This document shows positions 5,605 to 14,323 of a stretch of DNA of 64,000 nucleotides, in pieces (within the stretch, counting starts at the first letter, position 1; the number at the start of each line of letters is the position of its first letter). Where the stretch lies: assembly GCF_024449095.1 (NCBI RefSeq), contig NZ_CP024627.1, positions 3,162,001 to 3,226,000 of the forward strand, given 5' to 3'. Below the pieces are notes generated by a model that searched no databases, had not been told where the DNA came from, and saw only the letters and a list, made by a program, of their open reading frames with translations. Source of the stretch: Vibrio coralliilyticus (lineage in GTDB: Bacteria; Pseudomonadota; Gammaproteobacteria; Enterobacterales; Vibrionaceae). The translations under genes and the position numbers were made by a program.

Positions 5605-5645
5605 AAGCAGCACAGCAATCAGGTCTTGCTGTGCTGCTTGATTTT
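5605..5645 (+). terminator. Rho-independent terminator of gor
   Basis: A perfect 14-bp stem (5605–5618 with 5626–5639) and a 7-base loop are followed by GATTTT. Confidence 0.85.
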
Positions 5646-5996: not shown

Positions 5997-7352
5997 ATGC
6001 TCAACAAAATACACTGCGCATGGCTAGGCCTACTATGTACCCTTACTGCTCCCGTCGCATACGCCGACTCAGAGCCTCCCGCTTCCGATAAGCAATGTGT
6101 CGCCGAAACCAATTGGTTTCCACACGAACAAACCCCGTTCCCTGATGGTAATGAATTTTCAGATGACACTAGCTGCGACTTTCATCGCTGGTCTTGGCAA
6201 ATGTTTTTATGGCTAACGCAAGAAGAAAACGGTAAACCCAGGTTTCTTGGCTTCGACACTCCCTATGATCTACTTGGAATTTCTGATCGCGAACATTTAA
6301 TGCCTCGCATGACGAAAACCATGACCGCTCACAGTATGGATGAATACCTACAAGCAGGTACGGAAGGAATATTAGTGGACCAAGATGGTCGTGCCGTTTA
6401 CTACTCTCAATACATCAACCCCGAATTCGTTAACTTCATGAAAGATAGCGACTTAACCAACTATAAAACGGTTCAAAAGCTTGCAAAAGAGCATCCTGAA
6501 ACTACTTTCCCAATCAATGTGGCTGAATTTAAAGCTTCTTGGAAAATAGTTCAGCCGAATGAAGATGTTTCGGGTTTTTATACTATGGACTCATCAGTCT
6601 ATGCGCTAAAAAACTCAGGAGGCAAAATTGTCGTTGATGATTCCAAATCACTTAACGTTAAATTGGCACTAGTCGGTTTTCATATTGCAGGCGTCGTTAA
6701 AAACCACCCTGAAATGATCTGGGCAACGTTCGAACATAAAAATAATGCTCCTAACGTTCCCTCTAAATATTCACCAAGCACCATTATATCTGACAAGGAT
6801 TGGACGTTTTATCAAGCGAAGACTCCATTTTCGCAATGTAATTTAAACCAAGGCGGTGCACTCACCCTCGATGAAGCAACACAAGAGCTATCGCCAGTAA
6901 CGCAAGTGTGTCGACAATTCGAAGATGGCAATCTCGCAACCCAAATGTCGTTTGCAGTTCCAACGAATATCAAAGTCGTCAATCAACTGAATGAAAGTGT
7001 TCTCGGTAAACTGAATAAGAATGATGTTTGGTCAAACTACTTCGAGGTTTCTGCAATTTGGTTCCGCCAAGAGAACGCCCTCGTCCCTGATATGGATCTA
7101 CAGACTGATGTCGACTCATCAGGTAACCAGTTGCTTATTGGAGGGTTACGTTTATCAAACTCAACTATTGAAACCTTTACTCAAAGCCAGAGCACAATGA
7201 ACAACTGCTTTCGCTGTCACAATACATCACAACGTTTTCCCCCAGCCGTCAATTTGGATCCCCTACCCGGAACGAACCTTAATATCAGCCATGCCTTTAT
7301 GAATATCTACTTCTGGGATCAAGAGTTGAAGCAAGCCAAAAAAGCTAAGTAA
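5997..7352 (+). CDS. Periplasmic protein with C-terminal haem-c motif, first gene of a LodA-like operon
   Basis: The 451-residue product has a clear signal peptide (hydrophobic residues 8–22, likely cleavage after AYA at 21–23). It carries one CXXCH motif (CFRCH, residues 404–408) near the C-terminus, so it would bind one covalent haem in the periplasm. Six further cysteines occur in the mature part (about 34, 60, 281 and 305 among them). I do not recognise the large middle domain. GGAG lies 7 bases before the ATG. It is 36 bases upstream of a LodA-like quinoprotein oxidase gene, so it may accept electrons from that enzyme or deliver it across the membrane; both ideas are inference. A methionine that could be the sixth haem ligand is at residue 435, but its role is not shown. 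Confidence 0.75.
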   Translation: MLNKIHCAWLGLLCTLTAPVAYADSEPPASDKQCVAETNWFPHEQTPFPDGNEFSDDTSCDFHRWSWQMFLWLTQEENGKPRFLGFDTPYDLLGISDREHLMPRMTKTMTAHSMDEYLQAGTEGILVDQDGRAVYYSQYINPEFVNFMKDSDLTNYKTVQKLAKEHPETTFPINVAEFKASWKIVQPNEDVSGFYTMDSSVYALKNSGGKIVVDDSKSLNVKLALVGFHIAGVVKNHPEMIWATFEHKNNAPNVPSKYSPSTIISDKDWTFYQAKTPFSQCNLNQGGALTLDEATQELSPVTQVCRQFEDGNLATQMSFAVPTNIKVVNQLNESVLGKLNKNDVWSNYFEVSAIWFRQENALVPDMDLQTDVDSSGNQLLIGGLRLSNSTIETFTQSQSTMNNCFRCHNTSQRFPPAVNLDPLPGTNLNISHAFMNIYFWDQELKQAKKAK

Positions 7353-7388
7353 TGACGGGCAATAGTCAAACACTAAGGAAAGACAATT

Positions 7389-9416
7389 ATGACAAGTATT
7401 TTTAGAGTACATCCGGCTATCAATTTCGCACGAGTCGGAAACAGTGAAGAGTATTACATTGCGCCAGAGACCGCTGCGGGCGAGTTGTTAGACAAAGACA
7501 CAGGGCTCTTCGGTGGATTACCAATCAAACCAGGCACTGAAGATACCCCTATCACTGCCGAAGACTTCCGCGACTCCACTCCCGACAAAAAAGTGAAACG
7601 TCAAGCAGCTCGTTTTCGTATTTTCGCCTACAGTGACGAGCAACATAGCTATCCGAGTAATACTGCCGGTAAAGAAGTGAAAATTGGTGATGTAGTCAAT
7701 GGCAAAACCATCGAAGACATTATCTGGTCAGTACATGTTGCCAACAAAAAGAACAACAACTGGGGAATCCAGAGCTCCAATGGGCAAGAAGAAGGCATAA
7801 ATGCCTATCGCAATGGTCAGACACCACCAATTCGTAATCCTTCTTACGGCACTGTACTAAACACCAATGACAGAATGACAAAACTGGTCATTGACCCAGG
7901 ACCACGCACTATTCAATCTTCCGAGTCAGGAAAAATTGTCGAGTTTGACGCCAAAACACCGAGCACCTATATCAACAGTGAAGGTAATATAGCCAGTTGC
8001 GATTACCCAGTTAGCTTCCCCGCCGATCATTTTGAAAATCAAAACCCAAACTCAGGGGACATTACCACTCTTGGACAATTACAAATTGAGCCAGATACCG
8101 GCAGATTGATCATTACAGGGGGCTACGGTAACGCATTTGCCTTTGTCGATGCAGATGGCAATAAGCCAACATTAGAAGATCCACTCGATAACGATGGTTG
8201 GTTCGATGATGTCTCAGACGGTCCGGTAAACGCGATCATTAAATTTAATGATGGTAGCCAAGCAAGCGTTGTTGCAGGATGGTTTGTCTGCACCGATCCA
8301 AGCTACGCGCCACAGACACGTAATGTCGTCTCAACCTGGGATGATATTTTCAATACTTGGGTAGAACAGCTAGATCTCATCCCAAACCTTTTTGCTGATG
8401 GCAAATACAACCCTGAATACGCCGCCTCTTTCTATGGAGATGTACTCCCAGTATTTCACGGCGCTTTTTTGCAACAGTGGAATACCAATCTTCCCGGACA
8501 AGCGATTAACGGTCACCGGTTTGTAGCTGCAATCAAACCGTCTGACGATCCTAAGGTAAAATTTCCCAACTTTGACAGTTTGATTCGCAATCCCAACGAT
8601 CCCGCTCAAAGTGAGCAAGGTCGTATGATGCCGCTTTCATTAGGTGATGCGCAAAAAAGCTTTTTATCACTTTCCACAACTCAATATTTTCTTTTAAAGC
8701 AATGGCATAACGGCATAAGCGAAGCTGAAGCCCCATCACTCAGCCTTGGGGAAAAACTGGATAAAGTGGTTTTAGAAAACTGCTTGGGAGGACGTTATTC
8801 ACCCGGAATCGATCTCACCTTCATTGTTCGTGATGTAAACCTTTACCAGCAGAAGTGGCAAGGAGAAGCAGGGCCATTTCGCATTAACCAACAAAGACTC
8901 GATTATCAAGATGCCACTCCTGATCAACCCTTCCTAAACATAGGTTACATTCCACTAAACAAAGACCCTGTCGAGCCTGGGGATCTATCTAAATTCATGG
9001 CTCAGCCTTGGCATACCGACTACAACAGTTGTGCAGTACACGAGCCAGATCCTAATCCACCGGGGAACAATACGCTTTATTGGTCTTGGCCGGCGCAGCG
9101 CCCTGTACAAGTCTATCCCGTAGATTTATGCACATTCGACGAGAGCAGCCAGACTTGGTCTCTCGGCAGGCAGCTCTTCAGCGTTCGCGGGGAAGGAACA
9201 GAAACCGATTACCCACAAAATCGTGGTCGCTTTCAAAGATACATTGATTACGTTGAAAACTGGCACAAAACAGGTTTCGTGATCCAAGGGATACAAGTCA
9301 AAGCTGAGCAAGGGAACAACTACGGAGTAGACAAGTTCATTGAAGTCGCTAGCCAGTATAAGTCTGAGGGTGATCTAGTACAGCCAGGCTTAACCTCTGC
9401 CATTCCAGAAGATTAA
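7389..9416 (+). CDS. LodA/GoxA-like cysteine-tryptophylquinone (CTQ) amino-acid oxidase
   Basis: The 675-residue product begins MTSIFRVHPAINFARVGNSE, the hallmark N-terminus of LodA-like proteins (lysine-ε-oxidase LodA, glycine oxidase GoxA). These enzymes oxidatively deaminate amino acids, giving hydrogen peroxide, and carry a CTQ cofactor built from their own Cys and Trp. Candidate cofactor residues are Cys548 with Asp544 four residues before it (DYNSC), as in the Asp–Cys spacing of LodA, and Trp565 or Trp567 in the segment WSWPAQRP. There is no N-terminal signal peptide, as in LodA itself, although that protein is found outside cells. AAGGAAA precedes the ATG. The substrate cannot be told from sequence. 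The LodB-like maturation gene follows. Confidence 0.85.
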   Translation: MTSIFRVHPAINFARVGNSEEYYIAPETAAGELLDKDTGLFGGLPIKPGTEDTPITAEDFRDSTPDKKVKRQAARFRIFAYSDEQHSYPSNTAGKEVKIGDVVNGKTIEDIIWSVHVANKKNNNWGIQSSNGQEEGINAYRNGQTPPIRNPSYGTVLNTNDRMTKLVIDPGPRTIQSSESGKIVEFDAKTPSTYINSEGNIASCDYPVSFPADHFENQNPNSGDITTLGQLQIEPDTGRLIITGGYGNAFAFVDADGNKPTLEDPLDNDGWFDDVSDGPVNAIIKFNDGSQASVVAGWFVCTDPSYAPQTRNVVSTWDDIFNTWVEQLDLIPNLFADGKYNPEYAASFYGDVLPVFHGAFLQQWNTNLPGQAINGHRFVAAIKPSDDPKVKFPNFDSLIRNPNDPAQSEQGRMMPLSLGDAQKSFLSLSTTQYFLLKQWHNGISEAEAPSLSLGEKLDKVVLENCLGGRYSPGIDLTFIVRDVNLYQQKWQGEAGPFRINQQRLDYQDATPDQPFLNIGYIPLNKDPVEPGDLSKFMAQPWHTDYNSCAVHEPDPNPPGNNTLYWSWPAQRPVQVYPVDLCTFDESSQTWSLGRQLFSVRGEGTETDYPQNRGRFQRYIDYVENWHKTGFVIQGIQVKAEQGNNYGVDKFIEVASQYKSEGDLVQPGLTSAIPED

Positions 9417-9442
9417 CTGGCCATCGGCGATTGTCACCTACT

Positions 9443-9466
9443 GCGGGCAAGCAAAGGTTTGCCCGC
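9443..9466 (+). promoter_or_regulatory. Hairpin between the LodA-like and LodB-like genes
   Basis: An 8-bp perfect stem (GCGGGCAA/TTGCCCGC) with an 8-base loop lies in the 78-base gap. It has only a weak T-run after it, so it may be a partial terminator or an mRNA-stability element that lowers the downstream gene relative to the oxidase. Confidence 0.5.
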
Positions 9467-9494
9467 TTGTTAAAAGAAGAGCTGTCATAACCCT

Positions 9495-10646
9495 ATGAAA
9501 GATTACCACGTATCAATAATTGGTGGCGGACCTGCAGGACTTGCTACCGCGTTGGCTCTGAAAAATCACGCCAATGCTTCAGGTGAAAAGTTTCATATCG
9601 ACGTATTCGAAGCCAACGGCAAGGCCAAAGCAAAAATTGGTGAAACCATTCCACCTGCCGCCACACCGATACTACGCGATCTAGTTGGTGAACACCTAGA
9701 TAGCATGCTAGCAGAACATACCGTGTGTCCAGGCTCCCTCTCCCTGTGGGGAAGTGATCAGCCGGGTATGAACGATTTTATGTTCGACCTTGATGGGCAA
9801 GGCTACCACTTAGATAGAAAGCGATTTGAAGAACAACTGAGTGACATTGCTCAACATAAAGGAATCCATCTCAATCCACACTCGCGACTAGCACAACTCT
9901 CCAAAAACAAGCACGGCTTTAGTTTACAACTAAACAAAAAAACAGAGAGACAAACCATCAATACTGATTTTGTTGTCGATGCGACTGGTTGTGCCGCTGT
10001 ATCGGCTCGCAGACTAGATATAGCGCGTAATACCTTTGATGAAGTGCTTTATATTGGTGCGCTTATTGATGATCAGGCGACACAAATACAGCCAGTATTA
10101 ATGCCTACGCGTACTCTGGTTGAGTCTTGTTCGTATGGGTGGTGGTATGCAGCAAAGCTACCCGGGAATAAGCTTATAGTGACGCTTTGCACTGACACAC
10201 AGCAAATGCAGGAACAAAATCTCGATGACCTAAATGTATGGTACTCTCTGCTCAACCAAACTCAGCTCATCAGAGAAACACTGAAAGAGCGACTCACTGA
10301 AAGATTGACCTACCAAGTTACTCTTTTCAAACGTGGGGCGAGCTCCAGCATCTTAAGTGCAGTGGTAGCTCAAAACTGGCTGGCTGTAGGCGATGCAGCA
10401 TCTAGCTATGATCCCATCAGTTCAGCAGGAATTACCAAAGCACTCATGCATGGACAGCTTGCAGGGTCGAGTGTTCACGATGCACTAGCTAAACGTTCAA
10501 CCTCTACACTTTCGCACTATCAAGACCAAGTTTTTTCAGATTTTAATCAGTATGTTGGCCTTAGATACTCTCTCTACGCTAGCGAGCAGCGCTTCATGCA
10601 ATCCGGATACTGGCAAAGAAGGCTAGGCCTATCCAATACCGACTAG
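9495..10646 (+). CDS. LodB-like FAD-dependent flavoprotein (CTQ maturation)
   Basis: The 383-residue product starts with the FAD-binding motif IIGGGPAGLATALAL and has a second FAD segment WLAVGDAASSYDPISSAGI at about residues 294–313, as in the halogenase-like flavin monooxygenase fold. LodB and GoxB proteins of this type are needed to form the CTQ cofactor of their partner oxidase. The motif GETIPPAA at about residues 53–60 is common in this group. Its place right after the LodA-like gene supports the role. No strong ribosome site is visible; GAAGAG lies about 14 bases before the ATG, so translation may be weak. Confidence 0.85.
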   Translation: MKDYHVSIIGGGPAGLATALALKNHANASGEKFHIDVFEANGKAKAKIGETIPPAATPILRDLVGEHLDSMLAEHTVCPGSLSLWGSDQPGMNDFMFDLDGQGYHLDRKRFEEQLSDIAQHKGIHLNPHSRLAQLSKNKHGFSLQLNKKTERQTINTDFVVDATGCAAVSARRLDIARNTFDEVLYIGALIDDQATQIQPVLMPTRTLVESCSYGWWYAAKLPGNKLIVTLCTDTQQMQEQNLDDLNVWYSLLNQTQLIRETLKERLTERLTYQVTLFKRGASSSILSAVVAQNWLAVGDAASSYDPISSAGITKALMHGQLAGSSVHDALAKRSTSTLSHYQDQVFSDFNQYVGLRYSLYASEQRFMQSGYWQRRLGLSNTD

Positions 10647-10788: not shown

Positions 10789-11694
10789 TTAGGCATGCAA
10801 GCGATCATGTTTAAGGCTATTCACGCATCGAATACTGGTATTAATTAAGGGGTGATGATGATGGCTATCCCATACCAATGCGACCTGACTGACAAAAGGC
10901 ATATCATTGATTTGTTGTATAACGACTGACTGATCAAGATGTTCAGTTAAAGATAACGGTACTATCGCAATGCCAAAGCCGGCTTGTGCCATGGTAATTG
11001 CGGTGCGCAATTGTGGCGCAGCATAAGGTCGAGCAATATGTACTCCCGCATTATGTAAAGCCGCCTCAATACGGTCATACAGCGCTGGGCCAGCATCACG
11101 AGGGAACATTAAGACATTCTCATTATTTAACTGGGTCAAGTCGAGTGTTGAATGAGCAACCAAACGATAGCTAGCCGGAGTAACTGCCACAAGAGGATCA
11201 TCAAACAAGACCTGCCGGTTAAGAGACTCACAGGCATAGCAAGGCAGGCGCATAAAAGCGAATTCCAAACGCCGCTGTTTAAGCAATGTGACCAACTCGG
11301 GCATTGAGTGCTCAACAGCCACTAAATTAAGCGTCGGATATTGCTCATGTAACCTGCGAATATTTTCTAAAACTTCCCTGCTACTCGCCGTTGAAGAAGC
11401 AAGTCCGATACGTAACTCCTGTTTTTCCCCTCGCGCAATTTGCTCTAGCTTACGCTGACAACACTCCACCTCTTGTAAAATGTGCTGTGCATCATGATAA
11501 AACTCTTCACCCGCTGCGGTCAGCTCTACACCGCGGGATAAGCGCTTAAATAAAGTAACGCCTAACTCCTCTTCTAGTTTCTTTATCTGTTGACTTAGCG
11601 GTGGTTGAGCGATGCCTAACTGCTCTGCTGCACGGGTAAAATGTTTCGCTTTAGCTACTGCGACGAAGTACTTCATGTAGCGAAATTCCATCAT
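10789..11694 (-). CDS. alsR: LysR-family regulator of the acetoin/butanediol operon
   Basis: The 301-residue product has the N-terminal winged helix–turn–helix of LysR proteins ([23 protein letters not shown], about residues 18–40) and a C-terminal effector-binding domain. It is read divergently from the acetolactate decarboxylase gene across 105 bases. In Vibrio cholerae and Bacillus an AlsR protein in this position activates the operon in response to acetate/pyruvate overflow and low pH. The call as AlsR rests on position and family; LysR domains alone do not give the effector. The start is one of two adjacent ATG codons. Confidence 0.85.
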
Positions 11695-11799
11695 TCATCC
11701 ATATATTTTTCATATCAAAATAAATCTTTTTTATATTGGATTTGTTGGGCGCCTCAAGTCAATCTAAATATACATCTTGATTCATATTTAGGTTCAGTT

Positions 11800-12585
11800 A
11801 TGCAACGTTCTATCTCTTCAGTCTGTTCTTGCTCTCAGCAAATTTCAGAACAGTTTGCTCGCTATCAGCAAGGCTCAGGAGAAGGCGAGATTTATCAAAC
11901 TTCACTGATGAGTGCTTTGATTGCTGGTGTTTATGAAGGGTCAACAACTATTGCTGAATTGCTTGAACACGGTGATTTTGGTTTAGGGACTTTTAATCAA
12001 TTAGATGGCGAATTGATTGCTTTTGATAATCAAGTGTTCCAACTGCACGCGAATGGCTCAGCACATCCTGCTCAGCTTGATCAAAAAACCCCTTTCGCGG
12101 TGTTCACTTTTTTCAAACCAGACATTGAGCTGTCAATTAATGACACGTTAACCCGTCAAGAAGTCCATCGACTTATCGATCGTCTGATTCCTAGTGACAA
12201 CATCTTTTGTGCGATTCGGCTTGAAGGGAGTTTTCCACTCGTCCAAACCCGCACGGTGCCTAAACAGCAACGTCCGTATCGGCCAATGCTCGAAGCAATA
12301 AAACAGCAACCCACGTTTCATTTTAAGCATCAATCCGGGGTGATGGCAGGATTTCGCAGTCCTAGGTACACCACTGGAATTAATGTCCCCGGCTATCACG
12401 AACATTTTATTAATCGAGCGAGAACAGGCGGAGGTCATGTTCAGGACTACCTAATTTCATCGGGTTTTATACAAATAGGTCGTGTCTCACGTCTTGTGAT
12501 TGATACACCAGTATCAAGCGATTTTCTTGATGCCGACCTAGTACCAAAAGATCTTCATGCCGCTATCGAAGCGGCTGAAAAATAA
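11800..12585 (+). CDS. budA: Alpha-acetolactate decarboxylase
   Basis: The 261-residue product (also called AlsD) converts 2-acetolactate to acetoin, a neutral end product that limits acidification during glucose fermentation. The family signatures are seen: [17 protein letters not shown] near the N-terminus, the [15 protein letters not shown] segment, and the conserved [16 protein letters not shown] segment (about residues 196–211) that holds zinc-binding histidines. I chose the ATG at 11800 because it gives the usual length and an AGG lies upstream; a longer in-frame start at 11641 would run into the LysR gene. It is the first gene of a three-gene operon. Confidence 0.93.
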
Positions 12586-12616
12586 CTCAACACATAGTCA
12601 GTCAAAAGGAAATGTT

Positions 12617-14323
12617 ATGTCATCCCCTCACGCTTTGCGCAGTGGCGCGCAGTTAATTACCCAGCAGCTAGAAACCTCAGGCGTTCGGTATGTCTTTGGT
12701 ATACCCGGAGCTAAAATTGATCGCTTATTTGACGCTCTGGAAGACACTAAAGTGCAACTGATTCCGGTAAGACACGAAGCCAATGGCGCGTTTATGGCAG
12801 GCATCATGGGACGTTTGACGGGTAAAGCGGGCGTGACCTTGGCGACTTCAGGTCCGGGATGTGGGAATTTAGTCACCGGTGTTGCAACAGCCAACGCAGA
12901 GGGTGATCCGATGCTGGCTATTGGTGGCGCGGTAAAAAGAACTTACCAGCAAAAACAAACTCACCAGAGCATGGATACGGTGAGTATTTTTCGCTCAGTA
13001 ACCAAATACAGCGCAGAGATCCAGCATATTGACGCAGCGAGTGAAATCATGGCCAATGCGTTTCGAATTGCTGAGTCTGGACGCCAAGGCGCATGTTTTA
13101 TCAGCGTTCCACAAGATGTCTTAAGTGAGCAAACAGATACAGACTTAGTTATCCCACCTAGTTTTCGCCCAAGTGGTTATGCGGATCGGGTCGCCATTGA
13201 AGAAGCCGCTCATCGGATTAATAAAGCACAGCGCTGCGTGGTACTGCTTGGCTTACATGCCAGCGATCAAGCCAACGCCTCTACGATCAGTCAATTTTTA
13301 CAAAAAACGCAATTACCAGTAGTGGGGACTTATCAAGCGGCAGGGGCCGTCGATATTCACTATTATCACCATTTCGCTGGCCGAGTCGGGCTATTCAATA
13401 ATCAACCGGGGGATGTGCTACTGCAAGATGCCGATTTGATTATCACCATCGGCTTTAACCCCATCGAATACGACCCAGAACTATGGAATGCTCGCCGTTG
13501 CTCAATCATTCATATTGATATTGAGCCTGCGCAGTATCAACAACACTATCAACCCTGTCTAGAAATTGTTGGCGATATTGGTTCGACATTACAAACACTT
13601 TGTACACAGATCCGCGAATGCTCCCGTTTATCGTCTACGGCAGTATCGATTCTAGAAGAAGTGGCGCAACAAAGGCATATCATCAAAAGCTCTCCGATTA
13701 AGCAGCGAGTAGCAGGTTTTCACCCGTTAAGCTTGCTCAAAACCATGCAGGCAATCATCACACCCGATACCACCTTGTGTCTCGATATGGGGAGTTTTCA
13801 TATTTGGATAGCACGCTATTTAAGCTGTTTTCGCGCTCGACAGATGTTGGTCTCGAACGGTCAGCAAACGATGGGAGTAGCGCTACCTTGGGCAATTGCT
13901 GCGAGCTTATTAAAACCTGGGCATAAGGTAGTGTCAGTTTCTGGTGATGGTGGCTTTATGCAGTCGAGCATGGAGCTGGAAACCGCAGTGCGATTAAATT
14001 GCAACATAGTTCATATTATTTGGGTCGATAATGCTTACAACATGGTGGAAATGCAGGAGCAGAAAAAATATCAACGCATCTCAGGCGTAAAGTTTGGACC
14101 GATAGACTTTCAAGCTTACGCGCAGTCGTTTGGTGCGCATGGGTTTGCCGTGACACAAGCGGATCAATTAATGCCTATTCTCCGCCAAGCAATGGAAGTA
14201 GAAGGGCCAGCAGTCGTCGCGATTCCCGTCGACTACTCAGACAACTACAAACTAATGCAAGCCAGAAGCGAAGAGCAACAAGATCCTGTTTTTCAAATTA
14301 ACAACGAAGGAGTTTTTCTATGA
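12617..14323 (+). CDS. budB: Catabolic acetolactate synthase
   Basis: The 568-residue product (also AlsS) condenses two pyruvates to 2-acetolactate with thiamine diphosphate. It has the N-terminal pyrimidine-binding domain with GVRYVFGIPGAKIDRLF and the catalytic Glu in PVRHEANGAFMA (about residue 57), and the C-terminal cofactor motif GDGGFMQS...NNAYN-like (GDGGF at about 449, then VDNAYN). The FAD-binding anabolic features and a separate small subunit gene are absent, as expected for the catabolic type. AAAAGGAA precedes the ATG at 12617. It starts 31 bases after budA and overlaps budC by 4 bases. Confidence 0.93.
   Translation: MSSPHALRSGAQLITQQLETSGVRYVFGIPGAKIDRLFDALEDTKVQLIPVRHEANGAFMAGIMGRLTGKAGVTLATSGPGCGNLVTGVATANAEGDPMLAIGGAVKRTYQQKQTHQSMDTVSIFRSVTKYSAEIQHIDAASEIMANAFRIAESGRQGACFISVPQDVLSEQTDTDLVIPPSFRPSGYADRVAIEEAAHRINKAQRCVVLLGLHASDQANASTISQFLQKTQLPVVGTYQAAGAVDIHYYHHFAGRVGLFNNQPGDVLLQDADLIITIGFNPIEYDPELWNARRCSIIHIDIEPAQYQQHYQPCLEIVGDIGSTLQTLCTQIRECSRLSSTAVSILEEVAQQRHIIKSSPIKQRVAGFHPLSLLKTMQAIITPDTTLCLDMGSFHIWIARYLSCFRARQMLVSNGQQTMGVALPWAIAASLLKPGHKVVSVSGDGGFMQSSMELETAVRLNCNIVHIIWVDNAYNMVEMQEQKKYQRISGVKFGPIDFQAYAQSFGAHGFAVTQADQLMPILRQAMEVEGPAVVAIPVDYSDNYKLMQARSEEQQDPVFQINNEGVFL

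What the first reader, a model, noticed from the sequence alone, without database searches (positions are those of the whole stretch)
5997..10646. LodA/LodB-type quinoprotein operon led by a periplasmic haem-c protein
A LodA-like oxidase (N-terminus MTSIFRVHPAINFARVGNSE, DYNSC with Asp544/Cys548, WSWPAQRP) and a LodB-like flavoprotein follow a 451-residue exported protein with a single CXXCH at its C-terminus (404–408) and an unrecognised middle domain. Known LodA-like enzymes pass electrons to oxygen and make hydrogen peroxide. A haem-c partner in the same operon would suggest a dehydrogenase or respiratory-linked form, or a peroxide-handling partner. That link is inference from gene order. 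The oxidase has no signal peptide while its partner has one, so how they meet is an open question.
Basis: partly seen in the sequence, partly recalled or inferred. Interest (0 to 1): 0.75.

Follow-up and report, generated by a model that had tools for sequence, protein, structure and literature searches.

The report
Quinone-enzyme operon with unnamed haem partner
A marine bacterium carries a three-gene set, seen again in many distant bacteria, that pairs an enzyme with a self-made quinone cofactor with an exported haem protein of an unnamed family, which suggests a dedicated electron or peroxide partner that can now be tested.

Summary
In detail: haem-c gene 5997-7352, lodA-like 7389-9416, lodB-like 9495-10646; CXXCH at 404-408; Asp544, Cys548 and Trp567 align with LodA's cofactor residues. 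The gene order is a conserved operon. In a scan seeded with the haem protein, 28 of 32 loci have the lodA-like gene directly 3' on the same strand. In searches seeded with the LodA protein, 5 of 5 relatives with at least 46% identity have the haem gene (one already known from the scan); 0 of 20 more distant ones do. Haem-linked LodA proteins form one clade (100/100). The haem protein matches no Pfam or NCBIfam family. Distant relatives of it sit beside GMC dehydrogenases and other genes, and mostly not beside LodA, so the family looks like a portable redox module. Most likely it takes electrons from the quinone enzyme; peroxide handling or cofactor maturation remain possible. A weak resemblance to cytochrome P460, with an invariant Lys at the haem cross-link position, is the boldest lead. 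Structure prediction never ran (queue full in 29 tries), so fold, haem ligation and mechanism are untested. New variant of a known kind.

The parts
5605..5639 (+). Terminator-like hairpin between the preceding reductase gene and the operon
   Evidence: 14-pair stem; a consensus match only, 6 found against 4.6 expected in the region
5997..7352 (+). Gene of the exported mono-haem c protein, 451 aa, family without a name
   Evidence: ORF; no Pfam/NCBIfam match; relatives in 32 loci
5997..6068 (+). Sec-type leader of the haem protein (residues 1-24, cleavage after VAYA by eye)
   Evidence: read from the sequence; no predictor run
6531..6533 (+). Lys179 of the haem protein, invariant; candidate position of a P460-type Lys-haem cross-link
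   Evidence: 39 of 39 family rows; aligned on the P460 Lys (weak)
6681..6683 (+). His229 of the haem protein, invariant; candidate distal residue or sixth haem ligand
   Evidence: 39 of 39 family rows; role inferred
7206..7220 (+). CXXCH haem-c attachment motif, residues 404-408
   Evidence: 31 of 31 rows
7389..9416 (+). lodA-like gene, CTQ enzyme, 675 aa, no leader seen
   Evidence: PF17990 and PF18417; LodA structures
8181..8183 (+). Pro265, position of LodA Tyr211 / GoxA Phe316
   Evidence: letters; in 23 rows A15 D4 P2 S1 F1
8799..8801 (+). Ser471, position of LodA Cys448
   Evidence: in 23 rows S22 N1
9018..9020 (+). Asp544, position of LodA Asp512
   Evidence: 23 of 23 rows
9030..9032 (+). 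Cys548, CTQ cysteine
   Evidence: 23 of 23 rows
9087..9089 (+). Trp567, CTQ tryptophan
   Evidence: 23 of 23 rows
9443..9466 (+). [quoted passage not shown] may set the ratio of the two products
   Evidence: fold of 9417-9500, z -2.19, 4 of 200 shuffles as stable; role inferred
9495..10646 (+). lodB-like gene, flavoprotein maturase, 383 aa
   Evidence: NCBIfam LodB 253.9 bits, GoxB 212.6

Best explanation
A conserved three-gene operon makes a CTQ enzyme of the LodA family, its LodB-type maturase and a dedicated exported mono-haem c partner. Shown: gene order, CTQ and CXXCH residues, co-occurrence, and one clade of LodA proteins that goes with the haem gene. Inferred: LodB completes CTQ inside the cell; the CTQ enzyme is moved out by the unknown route that LodA uses; outside it oxidises an amine or amino acid that is probably neither lysine nor glycine; and the reduced CTQ hands electrons to the haem protein, free in the periplasm or held on a membrane, instead of, or besides, oxygen. 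The haem protein is one branch of a portable redox family whose other branches serve GMC dehydrogenases and other partners.
For: 28 of 32 haem-seeded loci have lodA directly 3' and 5 of 5 close LodA relatives have the haem gene. One clade of 29 haem-linked LodA rows, 100/100. Haem-family relatives stand beside GMC oxidoreductase plus small subunit, the place of the electron-accepting cytochrome gene, in L066, L147 and L177, and beside a molybdopterin enzyme in L143. Branches of the haem tree keep one partner: GMC-linked rows 100/100. CTQ with haem c has a precedent in QHNDH, whose alpha subunit holds two c haems (PMC7876137, passages). LodA Cys448 and Tyr211 positions are changed in this clade.
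Against: No electron transfer was measured. No Met is conserved as a sixth ligand. If the P460 resemblance is real, known potentials of that family (-200 to -424 mV, PMC11928373 section 8) may be too low for an electron acceptor. Characterised LodA-type enzymes use oxygen. Many neighbours of distant haem relatives are not dehydrogenases. In the phylum sample, 3 of 398 genomes have both families and only the window's has them adjacent.
Confidence: 0.42

Rival explanations
1. The haem protein handles peroxide: the CTQ enzyme is a true oxidase and the exported haem protein breaks down, uses or senses its hydrogen peroxide near the cell.
For: LodA-type enzymes release peroxide, and some group III LodA proteins are fused to a haem-binding catalase-fold domain (PMC4417212, parts read). 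An invariant His229 could be a distal residue.
Against: Relatives beside GMC dehydrogenases with small subunit (L066, L147, L177) would have no peroxide to handle, if those enzymes are dehydrogenases (recalled). No Pfam peroxidase or catalase match.
Confidence: 0.25
2. The haem protein is a late maturation factor that oxidises the dihydroxy-Trp stage to CTQ outside the cell, in the manner of MauG or as proposed for the QHNDH alpha subunit.
For: MauG and the proposed role of the QHNDH haems are precedents (PMC7876137, passages). Strict pairing with one LodA clade.
Against: LodA and GoxA reach CTQ with LodB/GoxB alone as known helpers, and the 20 more distant LodA loci have no haem gene. MauG has two haems; here there is one CXXCH. 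Relatives beside flavin enzymes have no CTQ to mature.
Confidence: 0.12
3. The haem protein is an enzyme in its own right, of the cytochrome P460 / c'-beta type, acting on a nitrogen compound or gas made or met by the CTQ enzyme's pathway.
For: 6 of 31 members match Pfam Cytochrome_P460 weakly, best 0.0046. Without the haem motif, the best profile match puts Lys179 on the P460 Lys: 0 of 150 column shuffles score as high over 36-398, 1 of 150 over 100-262.
Against: The full profile comparison aligns only the haem motif, probability 20%. The window protein itself has no P460 match. It is much longer than P460 (about 125 positions). Column shuffles overstate the signal because they break strand patterns.
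Confidence: 0.1
4. The three genes are co-inherited but the haem protein has no direct part in the CTQ enzyme's chemistry.
For: In the phylum sample only the window's genome has the two families adjacent. Fairly close haem relatives without LodA exist: L064, L148, L098, L101.
Against: 28 of 32 loci over several classes keep order and strand.
Confidence: 0.06

Closest known systems
LodA/LodB and GoxA/GoxB, CTQ amino acid oxidases (group IB of PMC4417212)
   Same: LodA domains, CTQ residues and lodB gene directly 3'; L071 is the group IB gene of O. beijerinckii
   Different: An exported haem-c gene leads the operon; equivalog cut-offs of LodA and GoxA are not reached; channel positions 265 and 471 differ
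Quinohemoprotein amine dehydrogenase (QHNDH)
   Same: CTQ enzyme with a haem-c partner and a flavoprotein maturase
   Different: QHNDH has a small CTQ subunit, a two-haem alpha subunit and a radical SAM maturase (PMC7876137, passages); here the CTQ protein has 675 aa of the LodA fold and the partner one haem motif
GMC dehydrogenase complexes with small and cytochrome subunits
   Same: Homologues of this haem protein stand beside GMC and small-subunit genes
   Different: Those serve a flavin enzyme; the usual cytochrome subunits have several haems (recalled)
Cytochrome P460 / c'-beta superfamily
   Same: CXXCH near the C-terminus; Lys179 aligns with the cross-link position
   Different: 451 aa against about 125 positions; no significant family match of the window protein; fold not predicted
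LodA group III proteins fused to a catalase-fold domain
   Same: A haem domain tied to a LodA protein (PMC4417212)
   Different: Fusion and catalase fold there; separate exported haem-c protein here

Membership tests
LodA family (CTQ quinoproteins) | LodA_N and LodA_C domains | tested here: met
   167.4 and 122.4 bits, over cut-offs 26.3 and 25
LodA family (CTQ quinoproteins) | Cys and Trp that form CTQ, and the nearby Asp | tested here: met
   C548, W567, D544 align with LodA and are invariant in 23 of 23 rows
LodA family (CTQ quinoproteins) | lodB-like gene nearby | tested here: met
   9495-10646; LodB 253.9 bits
LodA family (CTQ quinoproteins) | CTQ present in the protein; oxidase activity with peroxide | not testable with these tools
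   needs mass spectrometry and assay
LodA lysine oxidase (equivalog NF038172) | score over 600 bits | tested here: not met
   217.7 bits
GoxA glycine oxidase (equivalog NF038173) | score over 750 bits | tested here: not met
   139.1 bits
LodB maturase (equivalog NF038171) | score over 400 bits | tested here: not met
   253.9 bits; best of the maturase models but under the cut-off
QHNDH | two-haem alpha subunit | tested here: not met
   one CXXCH in P0001
QHNDH | small CTQ subunit with thioether cross-links and QhpD | tested here: not met
   the CTQ candidate has 675 aa with LodA domains; QhpD itself was not searched for
MauG / di-haem peroxidase | two haem-c motifs and a Pfam match of that family | tested here: not met
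   one CXXCH; no Pfam match for P0001
Cytochrome c class I | Pfam match; conserved Met ligand | tested here: not met
   no match; no Met conserved in 80% of rows apart from the start
Cytochrome P460 / c'-beta | Pfam Cytochrome_P460 match | tested here: inconclusive
   none for P0001; 6 of 31 members at E up to 1, best 0.0046; profile comparison probability 20%
Cytochrome P460 / c'-beta | beta fold and Lys-haem cross-link | not tested
   structure prediction was never accepted (29 busy replies); the cross-link needs spectroscopy

The most novel reading that the evidence does not exclude
The haem protein is a new, enlarged branch of the cytochrome P460 / c'-beta superfamily, with a Lys-modified or high-spin haem, that serves as an interchangeable module for quinone, flavin and molybdenum enzymes. 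In this operon, peroxide made by the CTQ enzyme would itself complete the Lys-haem cross-link and feed the haem, so that two protein-made cofactors carry out a two-step oxidation outside the cell.
Probability: 0.15. Interest if true: 0.87.

Novelty: new variant of a known kind. Interest (0 to 1): 0.6.

Why it matters
LodA-type enzymes are known as oxygen-using oxidases. A clade with its own exported haem partner would suggest that CTQ enzymes of this fold can be wired to a second redox centre, as QHNDH is by another route. It also points to a haem-c family without a Pfam entry that recurs beside several unrelated oxidoreductases, gives residues to test (Lys179, His229), and marks off a LodA clade of unknown substrate.

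Tried and rejected
Structure of the haem protein: alignment A5 was offered 29 times and the queue was full each time. So there is no model, no fold search and no distance from His229 or Lys179 to the haem.

Solved-structure sequence searches: P0001 gave one chance hit, E 1.2; the A5 profile gave none. NCBIfam with A5 gave one member with a chance hit.

Chromobacterium as a bridge to a phenotype: PMC4417212 reports peroxide in biofilms for C. violaceum (group IC). In the genus, 9 of 19 genomes have a LodA match; 2 have the haem-linked type (one of them the other type too) and 7 only the other type. So that phenotype is not used. Whether the Caulobacter group IB gene has the haem gene could not be checked; the control genome is only named.

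Foreign origin: the operon is at 43-48% G+C per kb against 42-50% in the first 20 kb of the window, which does not mark it as foreign.

Promoter scan: no + strand sigma-70-like site before the haem gene; 3 sites in the whole stretch against 8.7 expected.

The family of about 600 aa beside some haem homologues has no Pfam match for L058, L060, L059 and L069, so it is not LodA by domain.

Left out or lost: the script stopped with an error at L087 and was finished; its ORF list for L082 missed LodA, which tblastn found. Five fragments were left out of the LodA tree. L133 (wrong frame) was dropped and L134 not taken for the P460 rows, leaving 28 of 30. A5 has no row for L078, L096, L099 and L100. 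Of 34 plasmid records with LodA I opened 2; of 26 with the haem family I opened 15. Of 6 other LodA genomes in the genus, G135 and G164 were not fetched with wide flanks. Haem loci L004 and L005 were not opened.

Full report
What is there. Three genes stand in a row on the + strand: 5997-7352, 7389-9416 and 9495-10646, with gaps of 36 and 78 bases. A terminator-like hairpin at 5605-5639 separates them from the reductase gene before. The first encodes a 451-aa protein with a Sec-type leader (read by eye), one CXXCH at 404-408, and no Pfam or NCBIfam match. The second is a LodA-family protein (LodA_N 5.8e-49, LodA_C 1.6e-35). The third is LodB-like. By the alignment to LodA structures, Cys548, Asp544 and Trp567 fall on Cys516, Asp512 and Trp581 (counted by me).

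Is the gene order meaningful? One scan of a collection with one genome per species, seeded with five haem proteins (four of them beside LodA, so biased towards that branch), gave 79 candidate stretches and 32 confirmed loci. tblastn shows the lodA-like gene directly 3' of the haem gene on the same strand in 28 of 32. Of the other four, L096 ends inside the haem gene and cannot be tested; L097, L098 and L101 have no LodA. All 23 loci whose haem protein has at least 41% identity (L070-L092) have LodA. lodB follows in all 23 loci whose contig goes on past lodA; in the other 5 the contig ends in lodA. Hosts are gamma-, alpha- and betaproteobacteria and one Verrucomicrobia bin.

From the LodA side, relatives with at least 46% identity are G338, two plasmid records, of Pseudoalteromonas xiamenensis and Xanthomonas sacchari, and G592 and G575 of Chromobacterium. 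All 5 have the haem gene 5'; G575 was already known, since L090 lies in it. Twenty more distant LodA loci have none; eight of these were seen with 1.5 kb flanks only. A tree of 48 LodA rows puts the 29 haem-linked rows in one clade, 100/100 (five fragments dropped; most linked rows came from the haem-seeded scan). Distances of the two proteins correlate at r = 0.91 over 23 pairs, 0 of 2000 permutations as high; shared descent explains at least part of this.

Limits of the link. In the window's genus, 11 of 196 genomes have a haem-family gene and 7 of 196 a LodA gene; only this genome has both. In a phylum sample, 15 of 398 have the haem family and 12 of 398 LodA_C; 3 have both, and only the window's own pair is adjacent. 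So the pair marks one LodA clade and one part of the haem family. In the haem tree (54 rows) the core LodA-linked branch holds 24 rows (99/88), but L064, L148, L098 and L101 (no LodA) lie close by, other LodA-linked rows lie outside it, and the label needs three changes.

The wider haem family. I looked at neighbours in 41 loci of the haem family without LodA: L055-L061, L064-L069, L097, L098, L101, L142-L148 and L172-L189 (in L178 my ORF list did not show the haem gene itself). A GMC oxidoreductase with a small subunit stands beside 3: L066 (Pfam FAD-SLDH just over its cut-off), L177 (by similarity) and L147 (small subunit by position and leader only). A GMC gene lies in 2 more (L176, L178). 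A family of about 600 aa stands beside 6 (L058, L059, L060, L069, L180, L188), two of them with a tyrosinase (L069, L180). Proteins that I call VioB-like from recall stand beside 3 (L098, L101, L179). A ferritin-like gene on the other strand is next in 1 (L067), a molybdopterin enzyme in 1 (L143), RiPP-type clusters in 2 (L144, L145), BNR/YCF48 repeat proteins in 3 (L064, L065, L148). In the rest I could name no partner. In the haem tree the GMC-linked rows form a clade (100/100) and the 600-aa-linked ones another (85/85). That fits a redox module that keeps one partner per branch, though most neighbours prove nothing alone.

What the haem protein might be. In 39 family rows, near-copies included, Lys179, Trp182, His229, Trp242, Glu392, Gln396, the CXXCH and Ser431 are invariant, and no Met is conserved apart from the start. 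Six of 31 A5 members match Pfam Cytochrome_P460 at E up to 1, best 0.0046; the window protein does not. A profile comparison with 28 P460-family rows aligned only the haem motif (probability 20%). With that motif cut from both sides, the best match is a stretch that puts Lys179 on the P460 Lys: score 19.6 against 150 column shuffles with mean 12.1 and maximum 18.1; in the narrower stretch 100-262, 1 of 150 shuffles scored as high. The probabilities printed were only 1 to 6%, and column shuffles also break strand patterns, so the signal is overstated. In the 28 P460 rows that position is Lys in 20, Phe in 5, Met in 2 and Val in 1 (read by eye), which fits the account of the cross-link position in PMC11928373 (section 8). 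The same section says that a cross-link-deficient form was restored with peroxide. I treat this as a lead.

The LodA clade. Position 471 (LodA Cys448) is Ser in 22 of 23 rows, and position 265 (LodA Tyr211, GoxA Phe316) is aromatic in 1 of 23. The LodA and GoxA letters come; that these residues line the substrate channel is recalled, and one search found no held paper on it. So the substrate is probably neither lysine nor glycine. PMC4417212 (parts 1-4 of 6 read; term search) lists for O. beijerinckii one group IB and one group III gene, and a catalase fusion, which it places in group III; G565 has two LodA genes, L071 without and one with a 977-aa frame, so L071 should be the IB gene. The paper reports that no lysine oxidase activity was found in the strains of groups IB, IC and ID that were tested.

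How they meet. PMC2855505 (passages) states that LodA is secreted in stationary phase while LodB remains intracellular. GoxA has a twin-arginine leader (PMC3948610, passages). The LodA-like protein here starts MTSIFRVHPAINFARV, without a leader that I can see. Relatives of the haem protein show lipoprotein-like leaders (L077, L083, L095) or an N-terminal hydrophobic stretch (L084, L085), read by me. A meeting outside the inner membrane is plausible, not shown.

Judgement. The operon is real. In seven paper searches (several listings were capped) I saw no paper that describes it; most subscription papers are not held. I put electron transfer from CTQ to haem first (0.42), peroxide handling second (0.25), CTQ maturation third (0.12), a P460-type enzyme fourth (0.10). 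No biochemical step is shown.

Noticed in passing
L058 9081-10895, L060 8397-10217, L059 5543-6946, L069 2693-4426, L180 2662-4404, L188 6691-8493: A family of about 600 aa, with no Pfam match in the four members scanned, stands directly beside distant haem-family genes, in two loci with a tyrosinase.
   Followed up: partly
L082 3123-4379 and 4769-6064; L095 8001-9230 and 12856-14028: Two haem-family genes in one operon: in tandem before lodA (L082), or one before lodA and one after lodB (L095).
   Followed up: no
L054 3431-8557: In another genome of the same genus a lodA-lodB pair is preceded by a GMC oxidoreductase gene.
   Followed up: no
L056 8000-10770: Two adjacent exported proteins with one CXXCH each in a genome of the same genus, only one of them found by P0001.
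   Followed up: no
L144, L145: Haem-family homologues sit in cyanobacterial plasmid clusters annotated with TOMM leader-binding proteins and, in L145, a SagB-type dehydrogenase.
   Followed up: no
L100 8001-12940: The haem, lodA and lodB genes of this locus are each split over frames, which looks like a decayed copy or poor sequence.
   Followed up: no
window 9443-9466: A ten-pair G+C-rich hairpin without a T run lies between the lodA-like and lodB-like genes.
   Followed up: partly
window 10789-14323: A LysR-type regulator and genes like acetolactate decarboxylase and acetolactate synthase follow the operon (labels recalled from the sequences); they look unrelated.
   Followed up: no
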